Assembly: GCF_000223905.1 (NCBI RefSeq)
Contig: NC_015943.1
Coordinates: 124,001-188,000 of the forward strand
Direction of reading: 5' to 3'
Length of the DNA: 64,000 bases
Source of the DNA: Haloarcula hispanica ATCC 33960
GTDB lineage: Archaea; Halobacteriota; Halobacteria; Halobacteriales; Haloarculaceae
Translations under genes and position numbers: made by a program
Shown here: in pieces, positions 11,568 through 28,392 of the stretch
Position numbering within the stretch: position 1 is the stretch's first letter
Layout of the letters: every line of letters starts with the position of its first letter
The notes under the pieces: model-generated
Told to the model about the DNA's origin: nothing
Databases searched by the model: none
What the model saw: only the letters and a program-made list of their open reading frames with translations

Positions 11568-11893
11568 CGAAGAACTCACAGATTATTATCCTTGAAAGCA
11601 GTGATGCCACAGGACTTGTAGGCGTATCTCTACGAGGGCGACATTCTTTATCGCCCGGTCGGTCACGGTTCCGTTGATGATATCTGTCCAGGCGTGGATC
11701 TCTAGCCAATCGTGTGTTTAGGACAAACTCCAACGCCAATTGAATCGTTGCGGGTCTTGGGATGCTACCACGATGCAAGTTTAGATTCCAGTTTTGTATA
11801 TACTTTCTGCGGCGACGGTTGAGTATATGAGGAGGTGCGGTTTATACGGGACCGTAGAAAGCACTACCTTTGGACGGCAGGAGCACTGACGTA
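11568..11893. other. intergenic, leader-distal flank of the CRISPR array
   Basis: Nothing convincing. An open minus-strand frame here has no family match and poor codon structure. Confidence 0.4.
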
Positions 11894-12772
11894 GTTTCAG
11901 CCTTTCAAAAGTTCGGCTGAAACTCTATCGACCAGCGCGAAGTAAGACTGTGTGTGCCGAGCTTCAACCCCACGAGGGTTCGTCTGAAACTCGACCAGTC
12001 CGTAACGTTCAGATTCGTGTACTTGCTTCAACCCCACGAGGGTTCGTCTGAAACTGTGATGGGTCTGGCGACCAGCCAGTGCGGCGAGGCTTCAACCCCA
12101 CGAGGGTTCGTCTGAAACTTGCGCCATCGCCACCTCACCACAGCCGTCACAGCTTCAACCCCACGAGGGTTCGTCTGAAACGGGTAGAGCAACCCGGCGA
12201 CGAAGCCACCGATGGCGCTTCAACCCCACGAGGGTTCGTCTGAAACCGGCATTACTCCTCCGTTGCCAGACCGCCAGTGTAGCTTCAACCCCACGAGGGT
12301 TCGTCTGAAACACGAGCGCGGCGGTCTTGTTCATGCTCCCGCCGAGGCTTCAACCCCACGAGGGTTCGTCTGAAACAGTAGCGTTGTTGCCATTGGTATT
12401 GAGTTACTCGCGCTTCAACCCCACGAGGGTTCGTCTGAAACTCCGATCTGGCTCTCGTGGTTCTGTGACGAGATAGGGCTTCAACCCCACGAGGGTTCGT
12501 CTGAAACTCTCGGCGGAACCACCGCCGATCACGACAACGAGGTGCTTCAACCCCACGAGGGTTCGTCTGAAACCCTGCAGGTCCGCGCCGGCCGCCGGCA
12601 ATGACGTTCGCTTCAACCCCACGAGGGTTCGTCTGAAACCAGGCAGATCAGATGGATATAGACGCGATTCTCGACGCTTCAACCCCACGAGGGTTCGTCT
12701 GAAACAACGTTATCGGAGGCGATGACTGATGGCAGAAAGCAAGCTTCAACCCCACGAGGGTTCGTCTGAAAC
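11894..12772 (-). CRISPR. type I-B CRISPR array, 14 repeats and 13 spacers
   Basis: Thirteen identical 30-bp repeats begin at 11961, 12025, 12089, 12152, 12217, 12282, 12347, 12412, 12478, 12544, 12610, 12676 and 12743; a degenerate one lies at 11894-11923 (21 of 30 matches). Spacers are 33-37 bp. In minus orientation the repeat starts GTTTCAGACGAACCC and ends GGGGTTGAAGC, the haloarchaeal I-B form, predicting the crRNA 5' handle GUUGAAGC. The degenerate end repeat and the position of cas2 place the leader at the right, so transcription is leftward on the minus strand. By eye, no spacer matched the rest of the window. Confidence 0.98.
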
Positions 12773-14686: not shown

Positions 14687-17313
14687 AAGATCCGCCTCTC
14701 AGCAGTGCTGTCCGGTATGACGAACCCGGTATTCTGATCAAAATACTGGCTCAACCCGTGTTTGCGGACATCAAGACACAGTACATCCGTATCGGAATGG
14801 ACTGGATTCAATTGCCCCAGCTTTTCTTTTTTATCAGACTCACCGTGATAGATAGGGAACGAGACTCGTATCTCCTTGAGTCCATCCATCAACCGACGGA
14901 CACGGTCGAACTCGTACCGCTTCCACGCTTCGCGCACCTGTTCTACTTGCCGCCGTTCGGCTTCAGTTCGGCAAATGATGATGTCCACAGCGTTACGCTG
15001 GTTGATCAGCGACAACTCCGCCAGTTTGTCCCCGCGTGCATTGTCGACATACTCGGCGTACTCTTGCTTGCCAACGTTCTTGTCAGTATGTAGTTTTTTG
15101 TAATATTCTGTAACTGCTGTGCGGGCAACAGTGGTCTCGGAGAGCGATTCATCTGCTTCACGAACAGTGTCGAGCGTTTCAGCCGCCACAGGAAGCAGTG
15201 TCGCCCCTCGATTGTAGACCGCCTCTGCAGGCGTTTTTTGCTGCTCATCCGGCACATCAAGCCACCAGACAATAACACGTCCTTGTTCTCGCTCGAACGA
15301 CCGATTACAGCGACCGGCTGCTTGGACAATACTGTCAATTGGAGCCAGATCACGGTAGACGCGGTCGAAGCTGATGTCGACGCCGGCTTCGATGAGCTGT
15401 GTCGAGACCGTGATGAGACCATGTCCGTTGTCGGTGAGTTCTTTTGCGGTTTCGATCAGTTTGAGGCGATCCACTGGACGGAGTCGTGTCGACAGGTGGA
15501 GAATCGACTGATCGCTTCGCTTAGTGATACGAGTTGCAAGAGTTTGTGGATCGATGTCCGCTGTCGATTCAACTTTGCTGAGTTCGTCAGCGTAGATATC
15601 ACCCACATTAAGAAGCGAGTCTTGGATGTCGATGAGTTCGTCAAAGAGTGCTCGTGCACTATCGATTGTGTTACAGACCGCAAGCGTTGACGCCCCTGCG
15701 TCAACTGCAGTCAGCAGTTCAGCACTCGCGTCGGCGTATGGTTTCGGGATTTCTTGGGTCTCAATATACCGCTCAGTCGACTCGTCAAGTTCGTACTGGA
15801 CGCGCTCGGTGGCCTCGAAGTACACATCAGGCTCGTCGACCAATTCAGTCACCTCTTCTCCTCGGTCGGTTGCTTCATCGAACAACTGTGGTTGCGTTGC
15901 AGTCATAGCGATGACCGTTGCATCGTACCGCTCGGTCAGTATTGCAACAAGACGGGGGACGAGCTTCCACCAGTCGAGCGGCAAGCTCTGTGGCTCATCA
16001 AGGATAACTACACTGTCACGGAGAGCGGGAATCTTCATCGACTGTTTGTTGGCTGGCCCAGCAAGGCTCTCGAACAACTGCACGAACGTTGTAACTGTGA
16101 GCCCAGCCCGCCAACTTTCGGCGAGAATCCCAGCAACGTCGTCGTTCTTATCCGCTTTGTCGGCGTCTACGTCATCTTCGTCAACGATCTTGGTTTCCGA
16201 AAGATGGTGGTGAGCCGTCAGTAATCGTCCTAATGTATCGGTCTCGTAGATATCTTTGACTTCATCGACGACCTGATCGATGATGCTAGTAAACGGAAGT
16301 GCATAGACGACACGTTCGCCGTCGAGTTCGTCACGAACCGTCTGTGCGGCCGACAGCCCGGAGAGTGTTTTCCCCATTCCGGTTGGCAGTGTGAGCGTCG
16401 CTACGCCACCGCCATCCTCCGCAAATTGCTTCGCGTTTTCTGTAACAGCTGCCCGTGCGCGTGAACGATAGTGGTTGAGTCGCTCCGTTCTGGAACCGTC
16501 CGGATCAGCAGGCGAGGACGCTTCCAGATCCCCTACATATTCGTCTAACACCTGTAGTGACGGCTGCACTGCTTCGTACGCCGACTCCGAGGCAGTATTC
16601 TCACTGCGACTTGCTGCACTCGTCTTATCTGCGAGCACGAGCGATCCCCATATTTCGAGGACTAGACCATAACAAGAGTCTGAGAGCGACTCTCGATTGA
16701 TTGTCGTCCCGCTCTCTGTGGCAACGGCAGCGGCAATTTCATCAAGAAGCTCTTTGTACGACTGCCGAAATCCGTCCCACGATCCATCGTTATCAGTTGC
16801 AGCAACGAAGAGGTCGGCCGCAAGCTCGGGGACGTGTTCCTCGATATTGTTGAGCTGCATAGCGATTGCTGCCTGTTGTTGTTCGGCGTTGGTTTGGGCT
16901 CCAGCCGTTGAGTTCTCTGAGTTGTACGCACGGTCGTGGATATACTGGGTCACATCTGGAAGCCGGCCGTGATGTTTGGCGACCGCGACGAAGCCGGCCA
17001 GACAGGTCTCAGATTCAAACCCCTGTGCATCGAGGGCGTAGTAGGCGGCGAACGAGCCGATTGGAGCGTGATACCGACACGGCTTGTACTCGGGCTCGGT
17101 ATTGTGTCGGAGGTACTCCTGAAAGAACGTCGTCGCTTTCCCGAAGTCGTGAACGTAGGCAAGCGTCTCAACGACTCGCTGTAGCGACTCATCATCAGGT
17201 GTTGTCGCTTCAGCGGGAACGATTTCGTTGGCCCGTCGGGCAACATCATCCAGATGCGTCCGAAGATAGACACCCTCATAGCCCTCTTCGGGTGGATGAG
17301 AGTACATAGTCAT
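14683..17313 (-). CDS. cas3: Cas3, HD nuclease-helicase
   Basis: An 876-residue Cas3 with an N-terminal HD domain (His20 in RTHLDD; His55-Asp56 in YVHDFGK) and a superfamily 2 helicase: Walker A LPTGMGKT near residue 308, motif II ILDEPQ (DEPQ in place of the usual DExH) near 417, and motif VI QAAGRCNR. It is recruited by Cascade to unwind and cut target DNA. The ATG at 17313 overlaps the cas5 stop; a second ATG two codons later is possible. Confidence 0.96.
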   Translation of the reverse strand: MTMYSHPPEEGYEGVYLRTHLDDVARRANEIVPAEATTPDDESLQRVVETLAYVHDFGKATTFFQEYLRHNTEPEYKPCRYHAPIGSFAAYYALDAQGFESETCLAGFVAVAKHHGRLPDVTQYIHDRAYNSENSTAGAQTNAEQQQAAIAMQLNNIEEHVPELAADLFVAATDNDGSWDGFRQSYKELLDEIAAAVATESGTTINRESLSDSCYGLVLEIWGSLVLADKTSAASRSENTASESAYEAVQPSLQVLDEYVGDLEASSPADPDGSRTERLNHYRSRARAAVTENAKQFAEDGGGVATLTLPTGMGKTLSGLSAAQTVRDELDGERVVYALPFTSIIDQVVDEVKDIYETDTLGRLLTAHHHLSETKIVDEDDVDADKADKNDDVAGILAESWRAGLTVTTFVQLFESLAGPANKQSMKIPALRDSVVILDEPQSLPLDWWKLVPRLVAILTERYDATVIAMTATQPQLFDEATDRGEEVTELVDEPDVYFEATERVQYELDESTERYIETQEIPKPYADASAELLTAVDAGASTLAVCNTIDSARALFDELIDIQDSLLNVGDIYADELSKVESTADIDPQTLATRITKRSDQSILHLSTRLRPVDRLKLIETAKELTDNGHGLITVSTQLIEAGVDISFDRVYRDLAPIDSIVQAAGRCNRSFEREQGRVIVWWLDVPDEQQKTPAEAVYNRGATLLPVAAETLDTVREADESLSETTVARTAVTEYYKKLHTDKNVGKQEYAEYVDNARGDKLAELSLINQRNAVDIIICRTEAERRQVEQVREAWKRYEFDRVRRLMDGLKEIRVSFPIYHGESDKKEKLGQLNPVHSDTDVLCLDVRKHGLSQYFDQNTGFVIPDSTAERRIL

Positions 17314-18110
17314 CAGACGAACACCACGGTTCGACCGTCGACACTGGCTGCTGTCGTATCTCGCACGTTAAGCGAGTCGGCATCAGGATTGTAGGCGTAG
17401 TTCGTGAATCCAGTTGTCGTCCGACCACCGGAATCGGACTCCATAAACGCGGGTGATTCTTCGATCTGACAGCGTGTTCCTGCGTCCAGAACGACATCGT
17501 CAACGGCATTTGGGACAGCCGAGTCGACTTCCACAGTATCGGTCAGCGGTCCATCCGCGATATCGAATTCGCCGTGATACTCGATATCAGCGAGATGCTC
17601 CGAAAGGCCAAGACTCGGTACGTAGTGTGATTCGCCTGCGGCGAGCGTCTCGCGCAGTTCGGTATACCACTGCTCGTCGGCAAGTGCAACATCGATTCGG
17701 TAGGCTGGATCGACTAGTACCTCATAGTTGTGTTGCTGCCGGAGTGTGGTTGGATCTGGGAGTCTTACACTGATCTTCCCATAGCTGTTCAGCGTCTGTA
17801 AGTTCCCATCAGCGGTCGACAGTGTGTTCATCGGCATATTGACCGTCCTAATCTCCCGAACGGGTTCGATGGCGACTGCCGAGCTATCGGGCGCGAACAG
17901 GTCGTAGTAGCTATCCCGTTCAATCCCAAGAACGGCTGCTAGGAGCCCAGCAACGGTGGTCCGGGGTATGATTCGATAAGTTTGCTTGACAATATTGCCC
18001 TCAATCCGTCGGAAGTGACCCCACGGGCCGCGAACGGTAAACGAGAGACAGCGGTCAGGCTGGCCGTCGTTTCCGTTTGCCGTCCAGCTGTCCAGCGATT
18101 GTTGTGACAT
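17313..18110 (-). CDS. cas5: Cas5, Cascade subunit
   Basis: A 265-residue Cas5 of the haloarchaeal I-B type. The N-terminal strand reads DRCLSFTVRGPWGHFRRIEGNIVKQTYRIIPRTTVAGLLAAVLG, with the expected RxxEG and 'P-R-T-T-V-x-G-L-L-x-A-x-L-G' signature. Cas5 caps the crRNA 5' handle within Cascade. It is coupled to cas3 by overlap and separated by 2 bp from cas7. Confidence 0.95.
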   Translation of the reverse strand: MSQQSLDSWTANGNDGQPDRCLSFTVRGPWGHFRRIEGNIVKQTYRIIPRTTVAGLLAAVLGIERDSYYDLFAPDSSAVAIEPVREIRTVNMPMNTLSTADGNLQTLNSYGKISVRLPDPTTLRQQHNYEVLVDPAYRIDVALADEQWYTELRETLAAGESHYVPSLGLSEHLADIEYHGEFDIADGPLTDTVEVDSAVPNAVDDVVLDAGTRCQIEESPAFMESDSGGRTTTGFTNYAYNPDADSLNVRDTTAASVDGRTVVFV

Positions 18111-18112
18111 CG

Positions 18113-19195
18113 TTACGCCGTGTCGTCGTCACTCGGGAGTGTCGCGGTCTGTTCGTCATAGACATCGATTTCCTCTACGGCATCCGCTCCCACTGCGTCT
18201 TCGAGAGCACCGTAAAGTATCGATGGTCCTCCGAGTTCGCCATCGTAGGAGAGCTGGAGCACGTCGCTGGCGACAACTCGAACACGTTTAATTCGGTCAC
18301 TCGCCCCATCGAGTCGGTCTACAAGATCTGTCACGTCAAGCGTGAGGTCACGAACCGTTCGAAGTTCCTCGTCGGGTTTCGAATGCTCGCCGTCGATTTC
18401 GAGATCGCGGTCGAGGCCGCCGAGGTGGAAACTCTCATCGGCGTACTCAATGCGACAGTAGAGTCGCGGTTCTTGGCCGACTTTGCTCCGACTGATAGTC
18501 TGGTTTTTAATCGCCCGCCAGCAGAGAGTGTCGAGCCGTTCGACATCCGCTGCGGTGAGGTTTGTATCGGCAGCACCGTGTTCGTCGACGAGTCCGTGGA
18601 ACCGGATCAACCCATACTGAATCCTATGGTCGTCGAGATCGAATCCTCCTTGTTGTTTGTTCTCCTGCGTGGCGATTACGCTCGTCAGACTATCGTACTC
18701 CTCGTTTTCGTTGACCGCGTGCATCGATTTGCCGGGTGAGAACTGAACTGGACCGGTGAAATGATCTGGCAGGTGCTTAGCATATGCTTCGTCAGTATCC
18801 ACAGACATGGTCGCGCCGAAGTACCTTACATCGACGCTCTGGTTCAAAAACTCGCCGAAGATATCGTCGCGGAACTCTTCGACTTCCTCATCGTCATCAA
18901 GATCGTAGTCGTCGGGATCGACCTCTTCGAGGCGATCTTCGAGGAGCTGGCCGCGCGTGTACTGATCGCCGTCTTCCTGCACGTTTCGAATGTAGACGCC
19001 GTGGCCGTCGTCGTCAAGTTGATCGCGGAGATACCGCTTCAGACGAACGTCAGTGACGATGGCCTGCTGTGTCTGTGGATCGATTCGTGGCCGGTTGGCA
19101 CCGGACAGCGGATTGCCGTTCGGGTTGGCATCGACGGCATCATACAGAAAGACGATTTCTGAGCGGTTCGTTACGGGGTCAACTGTGTCGGACAT
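18113..19195 (-). CDS. cas7: Cas7 (Csh2), Cascade backbone
   Basis: 360 residues from ATG 19195 (MSDTVDPVTNRSEIVFLYD), one base after the cas8b stop; the upstream in-frame ATG would overlap cas8b and is rejected. The sequence DAVDANPNGNPL...RIDPQTQQAIVTDVRLKRYLRDQL is the hallmark of Csh2/Cas7 RAMP proteins. Several copies coat the crRNA and flip out every sixth base, a point relevant to the CreA pairing described for the cas8b-cas6 gap. Confidence 0.96.
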   Translation of the reverse strand: MSDTVDPVTNRSEIVFLYDAVDANPNGNPLSGANRPRIDPQTQQAIVTDVRLKRYLRDQLDDDGHGVYIRNVQEDGDQYTRGQLLEDRLEEVDPDDYDLDDDEEVEEFRDDIFGEFLNQSVDVRYFGATMSVDTDEAYAKHLPDHFTGPVQFSPGKSMHAVNENEEYDSLTSVIATQENKQQGGFDLDDHRIQYGLIRFHGLVDEHGAADTNLTAADVERLDTLCWRAIKNQTISRSKVGQEPRLYCRIEYADESFHLGGLDRDLEIDGEHSKPDEELRTVRDLTLDVTDLVDRLDGASDRIKRVRVVASDVLQLSYDGELGGPSILYGALEDAVGADAVEEIDVYDEQTATLPSDDDTA

Positions 19196-19196
19196 A

Positions 19197-21359
19197 TTAA
19201 TGTTCCTCCTCGGAAGTTGAGTCGTCAGCGTCGGCTTCATCTCGGTTCCACGGGTGGTCGTTCATCCCGTACGTCACGCCAAGGGCGTAGTAGAAGCGGA
19301 GATCGTCGGTTTCGATCTCCCACTCTTCTGGATCGGGATTGAGAATCGTATCACGAAGTCGGTCGACGATATGATCCGCCTTCGTGCCGGGGTAGTTCCC
19401 CTGCTGTTTCTTTTCCTGACGCGTGTAGGTCAGCGTCTTGGCGACGGTTTCCTGTGTCACCTTCTTGATCCGTGAGCGCGTGATCGATTTGACCGGGTAC
19501 TGATCGACAAGCGTTGTCGACCGATCCTCGCTGTACTCTTGATAGCTACCGATGTCGCCGACAAGCGCACCAAGCAGGAACGCTCCACGACGCTGACTCG
19601 TTACGGAGTCCGGATCGTCGTCGTGGTCGGGAGACAGTGCAGGTGTTTCGTTGATGAACGATTCGAGTTTCGGTGCGGCGGGGTGTCCCCCATCCGCGAT
19701 TAGGATTTCATCTACTGATGGCATACTTTTCGTATCATAGCTCGGTTGCTGTGTAATCTGGTTTTTTGACGCATCGGTCGTCTGCAGTAGTCTGAGGTCT
19801 TCATCCGCAAGCACGCAGAGTTGTGCGAACTGACTGGCAACGAGGAACGAGGGGAATCCTTCATGCTCGCTGTCATCGGTCTGATCGTCAATGATTCGGT
19901 TCACGTACTCTTCGAGCAACACATCGACGGCTATCTGTTTGCCACTCAGCACGCTGACGAGAGCTTCGATTCGCGGATCGTCAGCATCAGCGTTATCGTC
20001 ATCACGTTCGGCGAAGGTCTGTCTGAAATACCAGCCAGTCGAGACCGCGTGCAACTGCTCGTCGTTCGTTTCCAGCAGCCCCCAATTTTGATTGGTTGGA
20101 AGCGGTGCCGTCCACTTCGTGTAGTGGTCCCTATTAAACGCCGAGACGGTTTGGACGAACTCGTTGTGTGCGATTGCGAGTTGTTTAGGATAGTGGAGGC
20201 GGCCGTTCAGCGTCTCGCCGAATACGTCGTATCGAGACATCTGATGCGGCATCACGGCCGAGACGTAGAATCGGAAATCCTGCTCCTCAATGGTTTTTCG
20301 ACGTTCCTCCTCATATGCGTCTTCGATTGGTGTCGTCTCTTCGTCTTCGACAGTCCGGTAGAGCAATTCGTATAATCGATAAACCTTCTCAGGAGCCAAG
20401 CGACCGAATACGTACGGAAGGTAGTATACTTTTGCACCGAACGTCCGGTAAGTGCAGGCTTCAACAAACGTCTCAGCTTTCATTACCGTGATTGCGGCAT
20501 CTTCCGAAATCGGATGTGACCGCCAAGCTTCTTCGATATCAAGTCCCGGAAACTTCTCAAGCTGCTTGCCGAGGAAGTAATTTTGCGGATCCTCGGACGT
20601 ACCGACGGTTCGAGCTGGCGAACCTGTGACGAGATCGGTCGCGTCTCCGGACGAGTCATCTGCCTTATTTTTGGTAACGAGTTTCGAGAGTTTCCGCTGC
20701 CGCATGGCCTCGCGGAATACGTCTATGTCACCGGGCCATTGGTACTCGCCGTCAGGCTCTGTCTTCACTTGCACTGTCAGCAGCGCGGTTGTCGACTCAC
20801 CACCCAGTTTTCGCGTGAGTGTTTCTGTAATCGTATCCAGTGCGGTCTCGTTCTCACTGAATTCGGCAAGCTGGTCGATTATCCAGCCGTCAGGATGTTC
20901 GGTGGCAGCTTCGGTGACCACGTCGTCAGTGGCCCACTTGGTTAGCCGTTCTTTCGCATAGCGGGCTAATTTCTCCGGATCGCTGTTTCGCCCAGCTTGA
21001 TGTGTCACACTGTGATCGATTCCGCGGGCGGCTGGATACTTACAGTGACCGACTTGCTGAATCAGGTCGTCAGTGTATCTCGTCACCTGTATCGGGCCGA
21101 GTTTGTCGTCAGCCAGTTGTGGCTCATCACCGGACACGTCAACCCGAGCCACGATTAGGCTATTATTGGTGTCAACGAGATCGCCAGCAGCGTCGGGTGT
21201 GAGATACGGAGCATACTCTCCACCGCCTGTCGTAGCGAGGGTGTAGAGTTTCCCGTAGAGATACTGGAGGTCCCGAAGTGAACCGATAGGAGAATCTGGC
21301 AACTCATCGGTTAATTGATTCTCAGGATACTCCTCGCGGAATTTCTCTGGTTTCAACAT
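19197..21359 (-). CDS. cas8b: Cas8b, Cascade large subunit
   Basis: 720 residues from ATG 21359 (MLKPEKFREEYPENQLTDE), which matches the usual N-terminus and length of haloarchaeal Cas8b. The earlier in-frame ATG would read back through AT-rich promoter sequence. N-terminal LRDLQYLYGKLYTLATTGGGEYAPYL is characteristic. It recognises the PAM and holds target DNA. No small subunit gene is seen; in I-B it is often made from an internal start of cas8b. The gap to cas6 contains the CreTA-like module. Confidence 0.94.
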   Translation of the reverse strand: MLKPEKFREEYPENQLTDELPDSPIGSLRDLQYLYGKLYTLATTGGGEYAPYLTPDAAGDLVDTNNSLIVARVDVSGDEPQLADDKLGPIQVTRYTDDLIQQVGHCKYPAARGIDHSVTHQAGRNSDPEKLARYAKERLTKWATDDVVTEAATEHPDGWIIDQLAEFSENETALDTITETLTRKLGGESTTALLTVQVKTEPDGEYQWPGDIDVFREAMRQRKLSKLVTKNKADDSSGDATDLVTGSPARTVGTSEDPQNYFLGKQLEKFPGLDIEEAWRSHPISEDAAITVMKAETFVEACTYRTFGAKVYYLPYVFGRLAPEKVYRLYELLYRTVEDEETTPIEDAYEEERRKTIEEQDFRFYVSAVMPHQMSRYDVFGETLNGRLHYPKQLAIAHNEFVQTVSAFNRDHYTKWTAPLPTNQNWGLLETNDEQLHAVSTGWYFRQTFAERDDDNADADDPRIEALVSVLSGKQIAVDVLLEEYVNRIIDDQTDDSEHEGFPSFLVASQFAQLCVLADEDLRLLQTTDASKNQITQQPSYDTKSMPSVDEILIADGGHPAAPKLESFINETPALSPDHDDDPDSVTSQRRGAFLLGALVGDIGSYQEYSEDRSTTLVDQYPVKSITRSRIKKVTQETVAKTLTYTRQEKKQQGNYPGTKADHIVDRLRDTILNPDPEEWEIETDDLRFYYALGVTYGMNDHPWNRDEADADDSTSEEEH

Positions 21360-21436
21360 TTTATTTTTTGATTTGTGGTTGGCCACATAGTGACGTCTAA
21401 TCGTATATTCTGTCGCATCATATATAGTTCTAGGGT

Positions 21437-21459
21437 ATAGCACAAGGGAAAATATTTTG
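21437..21459 (+). promoter_or_regulatory. creT promoter with CreA target and TTC PAM
   Basis: TATA-like AAAATATTTT (21450-21459) lies about 26 bp before the expected creT start. On the minus strand the overlapping sequence reads TTC (PAM, 21448-21450) then CCTTGTGCTAT (21437-21447). It matches the CreA pseudo-spacer CCTTGGGCTAT at 10 of 11 positions, with the only mismatch at position 6. Confidence 0.85.
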
Positions 21460-21477
21460 TGAGTGCCGGTTGAATGT

Positions 21478-21570
21478 GTTGACAAGAAGGGTGATCACAT
21501 GAGAAGATGATACTCTGGCTGGCATCTGTCCTTGGAAACACTCATGCCAGCCACGATCAGGAGTATAGGA
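21478..21570 (+). ncRNA. creT: CreT-like toxin RNA (rare-Arg-codon mini-ORF)
   Basis: The region contains a strong Shine-Dalgarno GGGTGATC (21489-21496, complementary to the 16S rRNA tail) and then ATG-AGA-AGA-TGA (21499-21510). This is the organisation reported for CreT of Haloarcula hispanica, whose tandem AGA codons sequester the scarce tRNA-Arg(UCU). A stable hairpin follows at once: ATACTC (21510-21515) and TGGCTGGCA (21516-21524) pair with TGCCAGCCA (21545-21553) and GAGTAT (21561-21566). The ends given are estimates. Transcription opposes the cas operon. The position between cas8b and cas6 is as in H. hispanica. Confidence 0.85.
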
Positions 21571-21611
21571 GAACTCCCTCAATCATATATAGCTACCCGA
21601 GACAATGTAGT

Positions 21612-21694
21612 TTTACTGGGTCGGGGACATTCCAGATGAACAAAGGTTGGGTTGAAGTCCTTGGGCTATTGTCCCGATCCCAGTTCATTTTAAT
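21612..21694 (+). ncRNA. creA: CreA-like crRNA-resembling antitoxin RNA
   Basis: A TATA-like CATATATAG (21583-21591) lies about 25 bp upstream. A degenerate CRISPR repeat occupies 21629-21658: 21 of 30 positions match the array repeat, including GATGAAC and the handle GGGTTGAAG. The pseudo-spacer begins at 21659 with CCTTGGGCTATTG and matches the creT promoter beside a TTC PAM. An imperfect 15-bp inverted repeat (21615-21629 and 21670-21684) encloses the repeat. In the known system Cas6 processes CreA, and Cascade carrying it represses creT. No second pseudo-repeat was recognised; the ends are estimates. Confidence 0.85.
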
Positions 21695-21697
21695 AGA

Positions 21698-22495
21698 CTA
21701 CTTCCGTTGAGTCAATATGGCTGGGTTTTTTTCCGTGACGTTCATAAATCCGAGCCCCAGAGAGTTCCGTTCGCCGAGGCCGCAGTCCAACGCGAGGTTG
21801 AGATGCCGCCGATGGTGGTCGTCCCGAACTGTATACTCGAATTTCCACTTGCTCAGTACGTAGGTCATTTCCTGGCCCTCGGTGACAGTCAGGGGGACGG
21901 CGAACGTCTTGAGCAGTTCGTAGCCGTCGAACAGATCGCCGTCAACATCGCTCGGACCCGGCAGGTGATCGTGGGCGAAGCGGTCATGTTTCTGATCAAG
22001 ATTGTCCTCCAGCTGCTTCCGGAGCGGTGCCATCGAATGTTCCGGCCGCCAAAAGACGGCGGTGTCACCGCCGGGATGGTCGATCCCGTATTCCTCGCAT
22101 CGCCACGGTGGAATCCGAACCAGTAGACCGGTTCCGGTTTCAATCGTCCCGCGCGTGCCCGGTTCGCCGACATCGGGCGCTAGCGACGTGACGTCGTCAA
22201 CGCGAAACGGCATTTCGCCGATGTTCAGTTCCGGTTCCTCCAGCAAGTCAGCAGCGACGTGTGCCAGTAGCTCCTCCTCTGGCGAGGCGACCAATAGCTT
22301 CCGGTCATCACCTGCCTCCATATCGTGGGGAGGAAACGGGTTGGAGTAGACGAATCCCGGCGGCTCGCCGTCGTCATGGCGTTGGTCATACTTGGTATCG
22401 TCAAGCGCGTCCCAGAGCCGGCCACGGAGCTTGTGGTGATAATCGTTCTGATAAGCTGCATCCGTGCGTGCCGACAAATGAGCCATTACACGCAC
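21698..22495 (-). CDS. cas6: Cas6, crRNA-processing endoribonuclease
   Basis: 265 residues from GTG 22495 (MRVMAHLSARTDAAYQ); the first strand is typical of haloarchaeal Cas6, so the internal ATG three codons on is less likely. NDYHHKLRGRLW near residue 20 supplies the probable catalytic His region, and the C-terminal Gly-rich loop GLGERNSLGLGFMN is diagnostic. It cuts repeat RNA to leave the 8-nt handle and would also mature CreA. It is the first gene of the cas operon; its 3' end abuts the CreA module. Confidence 0.94.
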   Translation of the reverse strand: MRVMAHLSARTDAAYQNDYHHKLRGRLWDALDDTKYDQRHDDGEPPGFVYSNPFPPHDMEAGDDRKLLVASPEEELLAHVAADLLEEPELNIGEMPFRVDDVTSLAPDVGEPGTRGTIETGTGLLVRIPPWRCEEYGIDHPGGDTAVFWRPEHSMAPLRKQLEDNLDQKHDRFAHDHLPGPSDVDGDLFDGYELLKTFAVPLTVTEGQEMTYVLSKWKFEYTVRDDHHRRHLNLALDCGLGERNSLGLGFMNVTEKNPAILTQRK

Positions 22496-22697: not shown

Positions 22698-23930
22698 TCA
22701 GATGCAATCTATCTTGTTGATTGCTTCGGTCGCGAGCGCACCCAATTCATCGGCCTCGATGTGCGAGTAGCGCTTGCGAATCATCTTCTCCGAGTTATCG
22801 AGATATCGAGCAGCAACCGTGTATCCGAACCCACGGACAAGGATTTCTCCCATTCCCCGTCGGCCTCCATGAGGAGCGAGATAATCGTGTTTCGGATGCT
22901 CAATGTCGACCTCCGCTGCCTCTGAGAGCCGCTGGAGAATCGACCGTGCCCCATCTGTCGTAATCGATGGCGGGTGGATATCCTCGTCGAGAGCCAACAA
23001 GAAGTCCCGAGCGTACTCATCACGGTAGTCATCTATTGCGCCTTGCTCGCCCAGTTCGTCCCGCACGAGCGTTGCGAGCGTCCGCTGGTCGAACGTTGGG
23101 AACACAGGCCATTGTACCGTTGGTGGGTCCATCAGCGTTTGATAGCTCCGGAGTGGCGCAATCACTGGCTCGGGGAGGCTCGCAACGTCCCATTGCTGTT
23201 TCTTTCGGTAGACATCCATGCTCCCGTCGTCTAACGAAACCTCTCCCCACTGGATCCCACGCCGGCGTGGGTCGTTTGGGTCACGAAGGATTTCACCAAC
23301 TCGAACAGCTGTGTATGCGATAACAAAGACAAGAGCACGGTCACGAGCCGCCTTCAGAATCATATATCGTGCTCGCTGCCTGTCGAGCGAATCGACATCA
23401 TCTGAAAGGGCTCTATACGTCTCGATTGCATCGTTGACTCGGTCATCAACGTACCGGGTGAGTGTGTGGCGTTGCTCGGGTGTCCATATCTGCTGGTCGC
23501 CGGGTTTGCGACCGTCGTCCTCTGGGAGCGGTGCCATCGAGCTTGCCCGCCAAGCATAGTGCCCCTCAAGATATCCCTCGTTCGCGCACCAGCCACACCA
23601 TGCAGAAATATAGTGGTAATACGTGTGTATGGTGTTTTGCTTGAGCGCGCGGTCACCGCCGAGGTATCGGGCGTATGTCCGGAATACTCGTTCATCAAGA
23701 TCTTCGAAATTCGGGTCCCTGTCGATATCATCTGGTACTATACCCGCCCACTCGCTCCGGCCACGGTCACCGGTAGCCCACTGAGTGAACCGTTCGAGTT
23801 CCCTGGCTGCATTTCGTCGGTAGTTCCCGCCATCGCCACCACGCCCTTTCCCTTTGTCTTGGAGGTAGCGTTCAATGGATTCGTTGATGGAAATTCCTCT
23901 TGTTCGGTCTGATAGTGTATTCGGGCACAT
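22698..23930 (-). CDS. tyrosine recombinase / integrase
   Basis: 410 residues with an N-terminal SAM-like core-binding domain (residues about 10-140) and a C-terminal catalytic domain. The catalytic set is visible: Arg in TAVRVGEIL, HxxR in APHGGRRGMGE, His in the box preceding the nucleophile, and Tyr in KRYSHIEADEL. It resembles XerC/D-like and phage-type integrases of haloarchaea. No neighbouring tRNA gene or obvious attachment-site repeat was found, so it may resolve multimers or serve integration elsewhere. Confidence 0.9.
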   Translation of the reverse strand: MCPNTLSDRTRGISINESIERYLQDKGKGRGGDGGNYRRNAARELERFTQWATGDRGRSEWAGIVPDDIDRDPNFEDLDERVFRTYARYLGGDRALKQNTIHTYYHYISAWCGWCANEGYLEGHYAWRASSMAPLPEDDGRKPGDQQIWTPEQRHTLTRYVDDRVNDAIETYRALSDDVDSLDRQRARYMILKAARDRALVFVIAYTAVRVGEILRDPNDPRRRGIQWGEVSLDDGSMDVYRKKQQWDVASLPEPVIAPLRSYQTLMDPPTVQWPVFPTFDQRTLATLVRDELGEQGAIDDYRDEYARDFLLALDEDIHPPSITTDGARSILQRLSEAAEVDIEHPKHDYLAPHGGRRGMGEILVRGFGYTVAARYLDNSEKMIRKRYSHIEADELGALATEAINKIDCI

Positions 23931-25714: not shown

Positions 25715-26397
25715 CACAATCCTATCGGCCATGTCGATAATATTCTTCACTTCAGAGAAGATGATACAACCTCCCTGGAGCCGAGGACGCTATTTGAGCC
25801 GATAATGATCGTTCGTTGATTCGGCAGTTGCTTACGGATGGAGTAGCGACGAGGAACCACGACAGCTATCCCGAACTGAACTCACCAAGGCCGATTGCTC
25901 GTGGTCCAGCAGCTCAATGACATGGGGATCGTCGTTGCCGGAGTTGTTGACTCGTGACGAAATCTCGTCGGCGTCTACGTCTTTAACCAGCACGAGAGTG
26001 GTTCGGAGTGGGTTGTTGGTTATTTTGAGGCTCACGAGGTCGAACCCCCACACCCCGTGTGCGATATGAAATCGGGAGGAGAGTGGGAGGGGGTGGTCGA
26101 AGAGATAGACAACGAAACACCAGAAATCCGCGATTTCATGGAAAAGAATTCTCAAAGACAGCAATATTAAGCTGACTACATCTTATGGAAATCTTTATAT
26201 AGCTACCCTGTCAACTATATCCGTACCGGAACTAGGGTCTGTCGAAATGGAATAGTATATCTCGTGACATAACAACTCTCAATTGTTCCTTTGCTTTTTC
26301 CTGGGTTGACGGTCTTTGCCGGTCCTGTGTCTTCTCGTGGGTTCTCCGGGCGAATACCAAGTTCCTCAGATGATTCATCTCCGTTCCCCCTCTCGCT
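25715..26397. other. origin-proximal intergenic region with a reversed origin repeat
   Basis: No supported gene. An inverted origin repeat (minus orientation, ending in CGCACACGGGG) lies at 26046-26072. A minus-strand frame around 25840-26040 reads protein-like (SLKITNNPLRTTLVLVKDVDADE) but has no plausible start and may be a relic. Confidence 0.4.
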
Positions 26398-26722
26398 AAA
26401 TTCATATCGCACACGGGGTGTGGGGGTAGCTTAGTGACGAGATCCCATCTCACTCAGGATAGCCGAGAGATATTCTTGGTACTATCCGGCCCGAGACTAC
26501 GTCTGATATTTCATCTTGCACACGGGGGGTGCCTCCGCCGAGTTCTTTTGACTCGCCTTGACATCAACAGCTGTTTGATGAATTATTCGGGATTTCATAT
26601 CGCACACGGGGGGTGACTACGACCAATTGATTTCGCCCGCGGTTACCCAATCTCATCTACTACCCTCGCCTAAATGCACTCTACCTCTTGAATTCGGATG
26701 ATTTAACCTCGCACACGGTATC
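26398..26722 (+). repeat. origin recognition repeats upstream of orc1/cdc6
   Basis: Copies with core TCGCACACGGGG at 26399-26426, 26508-26532, 26592-26615 and a shortened one at 26701-26722. They have the form of haloarchaeal ORB sites bound by Orc1/Cdc6. The last lies just upstream of the orc1 TATA-like box (26727-26736), which suggests autoregulation. Confidence 0.85.
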
Positions 26723-26758
26723 ACTATTTATTTATAGTTTCGCCCTAACTGCGCAAAC

Positions 26759-28105
26759 ATGCCTGACGGCGACGATCAAGAATCCCTCTCACAATCTATT
26801 AAAGGCCGTCTTCAGGAGGGCGTTCAGAACTCTGTCTTTCGAGATAAGGGACTTCTCGACCCGGATGCCGTCATCGATGAGGACCGGATTGTCGGTCGCG
26901 ATGACCAACTGGACGACATTATCACCTACCTACGACCGGCACTGCAGGGGAATCGACCACCCAATATGCTCCTCTATGGGCCGTCGGGAACCGGCAAGTC
27001 ACTCATCATCAATGCGGTCTGTCAGCAGGTTCTCGAACTCGCGACCTCGCAAGGAGATCGGTTCGGTGTCATCAAAATCAACTGCCAGACGATCAAATCC
27101 CACGATCGGGCTGTCTATCGACTTGTGAAGAACGCGGCTGAAGAAGCTGGCGTCGACGTCGGCGTCCCAGAGAGTGGGATTTCGACTGACCAGAAGCTTG
27201 ATCGATTCTACGAGATTTTGAGCAATAACTTCGACTCAGTTATCATCATTCTCGACGAGGTCGACCTCCTAGTGGGTCGGCAACGTGATCCGAACGATGA
27301 GCCGGCGTATTCGAAACTGCTCTACCAACTGTCGCGAGCCTCCCAGCTTGGTCGCATCGAGGGGCACGTATCCGTTGCTGCGCTTACGAATGACCCCCGG
27401 TTCATGGAGGATCTCGACGGCCGGGCAGAGAGTTCGTTCAATCCGCAGGACGTCGTCTTTCCCGACTACGATGCGAACCAACTGCAGGCGATTCTCGAAC
27501 GCCGTCGCGACGCGTACCAAGACAACGTCCTTGAGGACGGAATTATTCCGATCAGTGCCGCATTTGCTGCTCAGGATCACGGTGACGCACGGAAAGCAAT
27601 CGATCTGTTCCGAAAGGCGGGTGAAATCGCCGACCGAGCTGAAGAAGATACGGTCCGTGAAGCGCATGTTCGCGATGCTCAGAAAGAGGCCGAACGGGAC
27701 CGAACGCTAACGCAGATGCAGGGATTATCAACGCAGAAGAAACTCTCACTTTACGCCACCGCGATTGTTCCTGTTTACTCGCAGCGAAATTTGAATGCCG
27801 TCCCCAGTACGGTTGCCTTCCGAGTGTACCAGTATCTCACCGACATTCTAGATGCTGCTGAAAAATCGCGCGACTCCTATTTGCGATATATGAATGAGGC
27901 TGAAACCTATAATTTCGTCACGTCTGAGAAACGTGGGCGCGGCTACGGCAGTGGTGTCCACAAGGAGTACACATTTGTCGACGATCCGGAAGTGGTCGCC
28001 GAGACACTCCAGACTGACTTCCGACTTGAGGGTGCTGAACACGAGGAAGATCTTGTCAAATCTGTTGTCAACGCGCAGATAGACGATTTCTTCGAAGGGA
28101 ACTAA
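26759..28105 (+). CDS. orc1: Orc1/Cdc6 replication initiator
   Basis: 448 residues. AAA+ ATPase with Walker A YGPSGTGKSLIIN (about residues 78-90), Walker B IIILDEVDLL (about 162-171) and sensor 1 ALTNDPRFM, followed by the lid and a C-terminal winged helix (YQYLTDILDAAEKSRDSYLRY region). The ATG at 26759 follows a TATA-like TTTATTTATA. Repeats on both sides of the gene make this the probable replication origin of the replicon and show that the initiator and its sites travel together. Confidence 0.95.
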   Translation: MPDGDDQESLSQSIKGRLQEGVQNSVFRDKGLLDPDAVIDEDRIVGRDDQLDDIITYLRPALQGNRPPNMLLYGPSGTGKSLIINAVCQQVLELATSQGDRFGVIKINCQTIKSHDRAVYRLVKNAAEEAGVDVGVPESGISTDQKLDRFYEILSNNFDSVIIILDEVDLLVGRQRDPNDEPAYSKLLYQLSRASQLGRIEGHVSVAALTNDPRFMEDLDGRAESSFNPQDVVFPDYDANQLQAILERRRDAYQDNVLEDGIIPISAAFAAQDHGDARKAIDLFRKAGEIADRAEEDTVREAHVRDAQKEAERDRTLTQMQGLSTQKKLSLYATAIVPVYSQRNLNAVPSTVAFRVYQYLTDILDAAEKSRDSYLRYMNEAETYNFVTSEKRGRGYGSGVHKEYTFVDDPEVVAETLQTDFRLEGAEHEEDLVKSVVNAQIDDFFEGN

Positions 28106-28131
28106 CACGAAGAGACGCCGACGGCGGCATC

Positions 28132-28364
28132 AAATTCGTTTCGCACACAGGGGAGTGGCCTCGGTGAGCGTATTATTAGAATGACTAAGTATGTCTGACA
28201 ACAGTACGCAAGATTTCATTTCGCACACGGGGTGTCTCCTCTAGACTGATCAGTCAATTCAGCTCTCACACGGGGTCCACGCGGAAAGCGACCAAAATCA
28301 TATCGCACACGGGGAGCCCTACCTCGACTCCGTCGGCGAATTCACTTCGCACACGGGGGGTGTG
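28132..28364 (+). repeat. origin recognition repeats downstream of orc1/cdc6
   Basis: Five further repeats: 28132-28157, 28212-28234, 28257-28278 (degenerate), 28294-28316 and 28339-28364, all in the same orientation as the upstream cluster. The best read as TTCACTTCGCACACGGGG. Together with the upstream set, ten sites surround the initiator gene. Confidence 0.85.
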
Positions 28365-28392
28365 ATCCGACGAAATAACAACAGTTGTCGTC

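What the first reader, a model, noticed from the sequence alone, without database searches (positions are those of the whole stretch)
21437..21694. A CreTA-type RNA toxin-antitoxin hidden in the cas8b-cas6 gap
The only non-coding gap inside the cas operon carries, on the opposite strand, a TATA box, a strong Shine-Dalgarno, ATG-AGA-AGA-TGA and a hairpin. A second TATA box, a degenerate CRISPR repeat (21 of 30) and a pseudo-spacer follow. This is the set of parts published for CreT (sequesters tRNA-Arg UCU) and CreA (crRNA-like, matured by Cas6, used by Cascade to repress creT) in Haloarcula hispanica. It would make the host dependent on an intact Cascade.
Basis: partly seen in the sequence, partly recalled or inferred. 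Interest (0 to 1): 0.95.

Follow-up and report, generated by a model that had tools for sequence, protein, structure and literature searches.

The report
The original published CreTA RNA toxin-antitoxin
This gap in the CRISPR gene cluster of the salt-loving archaeon Haloarcula hispanica holds the RNA toxin-antitoxin pair that makes cells depend on an intact CRISPR system; it is real, but it is the very locus in which this kind of system was discovered and published in 2021.

Summary
The window lies on the 488,918-bp minichromosome of a 3,890,005-bp, three-replicon genome, and 4,001 bp around the gap are 100% identical to Haloarcula hispanica N601. That fits the type strain ATCC 33960, in which creTA was discovered (Li et al. 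2021 Science; described in PMC8501985 and PMC9458426). All the published parts are present: BRE/TATA, strong SD, ATG-AGA-AGA-TGA, hairpin, second TATA, one pseudo-repeat (21/30; none of 2,000 shuffles reached 21), pseudo-spacer, T-rich end. Added here: in 37 of 40 related loci cas6 and cas8b abut or overlap, so the gap looks like an insertion. Two homologues occupy the same place, in Halopenitus malekzadehii (80% identical, AGA-AGA kept) and Natrialba chahannaoensis (diverged, AGA-AGA kept, compensatory hairpin changes, start codon ATC). As a side finding, creTA-like modules upstream of cas6 in other haloarchaea, including H. marismortui, share a conserved ~30-aa peptide (PTxNWxxxxH).

The parts
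21437..21447 (-). Seed of the CreA target (protospacer CCTTGTGCTAT) in the creT promoter
   Evidence: 10/10 identity to psiS positions 1-5 and 7-11, mismatch only at position 6
21448..21450 (-). TTC PAM next to the protospacer, complement of the GAA in the BRE
   Evidence: TTC is the PAM of this system (PMC3936756)
21446..21461 (+). creT promoter: BRE (GGGAAAA) and TATA-like box (AAATATTTT)
   Evidence: sequence; by archaeal promoter spacing the start would fall near 21480 (inference)
21490..21496 (+). Strong Shine-Dalgarno sequence GGTGATC of creT
   Evidence: identical in the Halopenitus homologue
21499..21510 (+). creT mini-ORF ATG-AGA-AGA-TGA
   Evidence: SD plus ORF string occurs once in the genome; AGA-AGA kept in both homologues
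21516..21553 (+). creT stem-loop
   Evidence: fold; three pairs changed on both sides in L037
21584..21593 (+). Second TATA box (TATATA at 21586), possible creA promoter
   Evidence: sequence; a start near 21612 is inference
21629..21658 (+). creA pseudo-repeat (psiR)
   Evidence: 21/30 to the CRISPR repeat, 7/8 in the 5' handle; 0 of 2000 shuffles reach 21
21659..21691 (+). creA pseudo-spacer (psiS) and T-rich end (TTCATTTT), no second repeat
   Evidence: one-psiR creA with T-rich terminator as in PMC8501985
21698..22486 (-). cas6, matures CreA; C-terminus differs from that of relatives at the insertion point
   Evidence: Pfam Cas_Cas6_C; annotated cas6 in N601; C-termini compared
19197..21359 (-). 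cas8b, Cascade subunit
   Evidence: Pfam Cas_TM1802; annotated Cas8b in N601
18113..19195 (-). cas7, Cascade subunit
   Evidence: Pfam Cas_Cas7
17313..18110 (-). cas5, Cascade subunit
   Evidence: Pfam Cas_Cas5d
11961..12772 (-). CRISPR array, 13 identical 30-nt repeats, plus one degenerate terminal repeat at 11894-11923

Best explanation
This is the creTA module of Haloarcula hispanica, the founding member of the CreTA (type VIII, all-RNA) toxin-antitoxin family. CreA is a crRNA-like RNA made from the pseudo-repeat and pseudo-spacer and matured by Cas6. It guides Cascade to a TTC-flanked site overlapping the creT BRE/TATA and blocks transcription. If Cascade is lost, creT is expressed: its strong SD drives repeated translation of ATG-AGA-AGA-stop, which ties up the rare tRNA-Arg(UCU) and stops growth, so the cell is addicted to an intact Cascade. 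Shown here by sequence: all parts, the seed/PAM match, the rarity of AGA, and a single intron-containing tRNA-Arg(UCU) gene. Shown by others at the bench: Cas6 and Cascade dependence, the role of the AGA codons, and the roles of the SD and hairpin.
For: Identity of the locus: C1 = 488,918 bp, total 3,890,005 bp in 3 contigs, C3 = 2,995,271 bp, and a 489-kb minichromosome in ATCC 33960 that is split in N601. The region is 100% identical over 4,001 bp to N601 pHH126. Parts. Seed 10/10 with PAM TTC. Published description. tRNA-Arg(UCU): one Rfam tRNA hit at C3:22451-22555 reads as anticodon TCT with an intron, and no other hit called by ARAGORN has this anticodon. AGA: 12 of 341 Arg codons, 2.5 per 1000, in 11 window CDS. 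Homologues keep AGA-AGA, psiR and hairpin.
Against: None of substance. The primary Science paper is not held, so its figures were not compared letter by letter; the match rests on later papers by the same group plus strain identity. A separate creA start near 21612 is inferred from the TATA box only.
Confidence: 0.98

Rival explanations
1. The gap is only a promoter region and 5' leader for cas8b, with chance resemblance to a repeat and a mini-ORF.
For: Non-coding gaps in operons often hold promoters; TATA-like words also occur near the cas8b start.
Against: The repeat match exceeds all 2000 shuffles and the seed/PAM match is 10/10. 37 of 40 relatives have no gap at all. The module is experimentally characterised (PMC8501985, PMC9458426).
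Confidence: 0.01
2. The repeat-like unit is a CreR-type regulator (a crRNA-like RNA repressing cas genes) or an ordinary solo CRISPR unit rather than an antitoxin.
For: CreR and CreA share the layout of psiR plus a short seed matching a promoter (review PMC12737573).
Against: The seed matches the promoter of the mini-ORF on the + strand, which reads away from the cas operon strand, and that promoter drives an AGA-AGA mini-ORF with SD and hairpin, not cas genes.
Confidence: 0.01

Closest known systems
Haloarcula hispanica CreTA (Li et al. 2021 Science, doi 10.1126/science.abe5601; described in PMC8501985)
   Same: Same species, same cas6-cas8b gap, same AGA-AGA mini-ORF, one psiR, T-rich end, seed 1-5 and 7-11, TTC PAM
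   Different: Nothing found; it is this locus
Halobacterium hubeiense CreTA (PMC8501985)
   Same: psiR/psiS antitoxin, identical seed geometry, TTC PAM in the BRE complement, rare-tRNA toxin with hairpin
   Different: Lies upstream of the cas operon, has two psiR, is leaderless without SD, and uses AUA-AUA and tRNA-Ile(CAU)
Halopenitus malekzadehii creTA-like locus (L044, L047)
   Same: Same gap, 80% DNA identity, identical SD and ATG-AGA-AGA, psiR 23/30
   Different: Stop TAA instead of TGA; seed 9/10; about 45 nt of extra promoter sequence with a second partial target

Membership tests
CreTA (CRISPR-regulated toxin-antitoxin RNA pair, type VIII TA) | Linked to a type I cas locus encoding Cascade | tested here: met
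   cas6, cas8b, cas7, cas5, cas3 and cas1 by Pfam and annotation
CreTA (CRISPR-regulated toxin-antitoxin RNA pair, type VIII TA) | One or two degenerate repeats outside the array | tested here: met
   psiR 21/30, above all of 2000 shuffles; no second one
CreTA (CRISPR-regulated toxin-antitoxin RNA pair, type VIII TA) | psiS seed nt 1-5 and 7-11 matching the creT promoter next to a TTC PAM | tested here: met
   10/10 with TTC at 21437-21450
CreTA (CRISPR-regulated toxin-antitoxin RNA pair, type VIII TA) | CreT of the H. hispanica kind: strong SD, AUG, two AGA codons, stop, hairpin | tested here: met
   compensatory hairpin changes in L037
CreTA (CRISPR-regulated toxin-antitoxin RNA pair, type VIII TA) | Cognate tRNA-Arg(UCU) and AGA are rare | tested here: met
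   one intron-containing tRNA-Arg(TCT) gene read by eye; AGA 2.5 per 1000 codons in 11 window CDS
CreTA (CRISPR-regulated toxin-antitoxin RNA pair, type VIII TA) | Cas6-matured CreA represses creT through Cascade; loss of Cascade is toxic | not testable with these tools
   Shown experimentally for this species by others (PMC8501985, PMC9458426)

The most novel reading that the evidence does not exclude
The locus itself is known. The most novel reading left open concerns its relatives. In a second group of haloarchaeal creTA-like modules upstream of cas6, including that of H. marismortui whose CreT mechanism is described as elusive, the Cascade-repressed gene encodes a conserved ~30-aa peptide (PTxNWxxxxH) under protein-level selection. 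The toxin there may therefore act as a peptide rather than as a tRNA-sequestering RNA.
Probability: 0.4. Interest if true: 0.5.

Novelty: already known. Interest (0 to 1): 0.1.

Why it matters
CreTA explains how costly CRISPR-Cas loci are kept: cells that lose Cascade are poisoned. That importance is already established for this very locus. The additions here are small. The module looks like an insertion at the cas6/cas8b junction with homologues at the same place in two other genera, and the relatives point to a testable peptide class of CreT.

Tried and rejected
The primary Science paper and the ATCC 33960 genome paper are not held. A pattern search for an uninterrupted tRNA-Arg(UCU) found nothing because the gene has an intron. 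A search of 391 class genomes for SD-ATG-AGA-AGA gave nine genomes; only the own genome and G226 are at cas loci. No phage record carries the module. An RNA fold z-score was not convincing for the hairpin; compensatory changes were used instead. A chance or promoter-only reading was rejected on the shuffles and the seed/PAM match.

Full report
What the window is. The genome holding the window has 3,890,005 bases in three contigs. The window's contig is 488,918 bp and the main one 2,995,271 bp. The 4,001 bases around the gap are 100% identical to plasmid pHH126 of Haloarcula hispanica N601. N601 is a laboratory derivative of ATCC 33960 with four replicons instead of three (PMC3953195); its 363-kb minichromosome and 126-kb pHH126 correspond to the 489-kb minichromosome of ATCC 33960 (PMC4441112). 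The window is therefore H. hispanica, very probably the type strain ATCC 33960, in which CreTA was discovered.

The observation. The cas genes run on the minus strand: cas6 to 21698, cas8b from 21359, then cas7, cas5, cas3, cas4, cas1 and cas2 without gaps. The 338-nt cas6-cas8b gap carries on the plus strand BRE/TATA (21446-21461), SD GGTGATC (21490-21496), ATG-AGA-AGA-TGA (21499-21510), a hairpin (21516-21553), TATATA (21586) and a 30-mer with 21/30 identities to the CRISPR repeat (21629-21658). In 2,000 dinucleotide shuffles of the gap the best repeat match was 20. The SD plus mini-ORF string occurs once in the genome.

If psiS begins directly after the pseudo-repeat, its seed positions 1-5 and 7-11 match 10/10 a minus-strand site at 21437-21447 with a TTC PAM at 21448-21450. 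The only mismatch is at position 6, which does not pair in type I guides. The next best TTC site in the gap scores 5/10, and shifting psiS by one base destroys the match. The PAM lies in the complement of the creT BRE, as described for the H. hubeiense module (PMC8501985).

How it works. Published experiments on the H. [quoted passage not shown] PMC9458426; PMC10097628; PMC12737573). The sequence here agrees with each of these statements. In support, AGA makes up 12 of 341 arginine codons in 11 window genes. Of 44 Rfam tRNA hits, one (C3:22451-22555) reads as tRNA-Arg with anticodon TCT interrupted by an intron, and none of the genes called by ARAGORN has this anticodon. Transcript starts near 21480 and 21612 are plausible from the TATA boxes but were not tested.

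Comparison with relatives. The nearest of these, H. argentinensis, is 93% identical in cas6 and 91% in the cas8b N-terminal part and has a 14-nt overlap. Three have a gap: L025 (about 110 nt, estimated), Halopenitus malekzadehii (L044, 396 nt) and Natrialba chahannaoensis (L037, 411 nt). Where the module sits, the Cas6 C-terminus ends early or differs. The simplest reading is an insertion at the cas6/cas8b junction, with later loss in siblings as the alternative.

The two homologues. The H. malekzadehii module is 80% identical over 247 nt, with identical SD and ATG-AGA-AGA, stop TAA, psiR 23/30, and a TTC-flanked seed of 9/10 (mismatch at position 7) about 45 nt upstream of its apparent promoter. 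A second TTC site at the promoter matches positions 1-5 only. The N. chahannaoensis module is much diverged but keeps AGA-AGA-TGA after an SD. Its start codon position reads ATC, and two tandem TTC sites match seed positions 1-5 only. Its hairpin stem reads GGCCAGCG/CGCTGGCC against GGCTGGCA/TGCCAGCC here, so three pairs changed on both sides, which supports the stem-loop. Whether these two modules are still repressible is open.

A side finding. Using repeat plus PAM plus seed as a filter on the relatives' loci, complete creTA-like modules appear upstream of cas6 in L019, L023, L027 and L028. Each carries a small ORF between the promoter and the pseudo-repeat, with a shared peptide of about 30 aa containing PTxNWxxxxH. 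A profile of these four, run over 391 genomes of the class, hit ten genomes. Besides the four sources, L105, L106, L107 and L109 lie just upstream of cas6, and L105, L108 and L109 also show a pseudo-repeat with a matching TTC site. Over the 13-codon core, pairwise differences by codon position are 83, 52 and 158, as expected under selection on a protein. No Pfam family matches. One carrier is H. marismortui ATCC 43049 (NC_006392.1), whose CreT is toxic in H. hispanica and whose mechanism is described as elusive (PMC9458426). I found no description of this peptide in the papers held, but the 2021 Science paper could not be read.

Verdict. Because it is the original, experimentally characterised creTA, its novelty is nil and its interest low; the peptide in sister modules is the lead worth following.

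Noticed in passing
L028/L104 (H. marismortui, NC_006392.1:36956-37024), L019/L101, L023/L102, L027/L103, L105, L106, L107; related layout at L108, L109: creTA-like modules upstream of cas6 in other haloarchaea encode a shared ~30-aa peptide (PTxNWxxxxH) between promoter and pseudo-repeat; differences fall mostly on third codon positions (83/52/158), no Pfam match. It may be the active product of CreT toxins whose mechanism is unknown.
   Followed up: partly
L044:2605-3000 and L037:1385-1795: Two homologues of the H. hispanica module in the same cas6-cas8b gap, in Halopenitus malekzadehii and Natrialba chahannaoensis. In both, the seed match to the promoter is imperfect and partly doubled, and the Natrialba mini-ORF has ATC where the start codon should be; either may be decaying or rewired.
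   Followed up: partly
window 21690-21760 and 21345-21365: The module sits exactly at the cas6/cas8b junction, which overlaps by 14 nt in close relatives; the last residues of Cas6 differ from those of relatives (ends NVTEKNPAILTQRK instead of NITEKTRPGESELEGSDAFA).
   Followed up: yes
window 26386-28373: Several copies of a TTCAT(A/T)TCGCACACGGGG(G/T)GTG repeat on both sides of an Orc1/Cdc6-like gene (26759-28105), which looks like a replication origin of the minichromosome.
   Followed up: no
window 11893-11925: Degenerate terminal repeat of the CRISPR array (21/30), at the leader-distal end.
   Followed up: no
window 22698-23930: A phage-integrase-like (SAM-like domain) gene lies directly beyond cas6 and is also found on plasmids of other Haloarcula without this cas locus in the match.
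   Followed up: no
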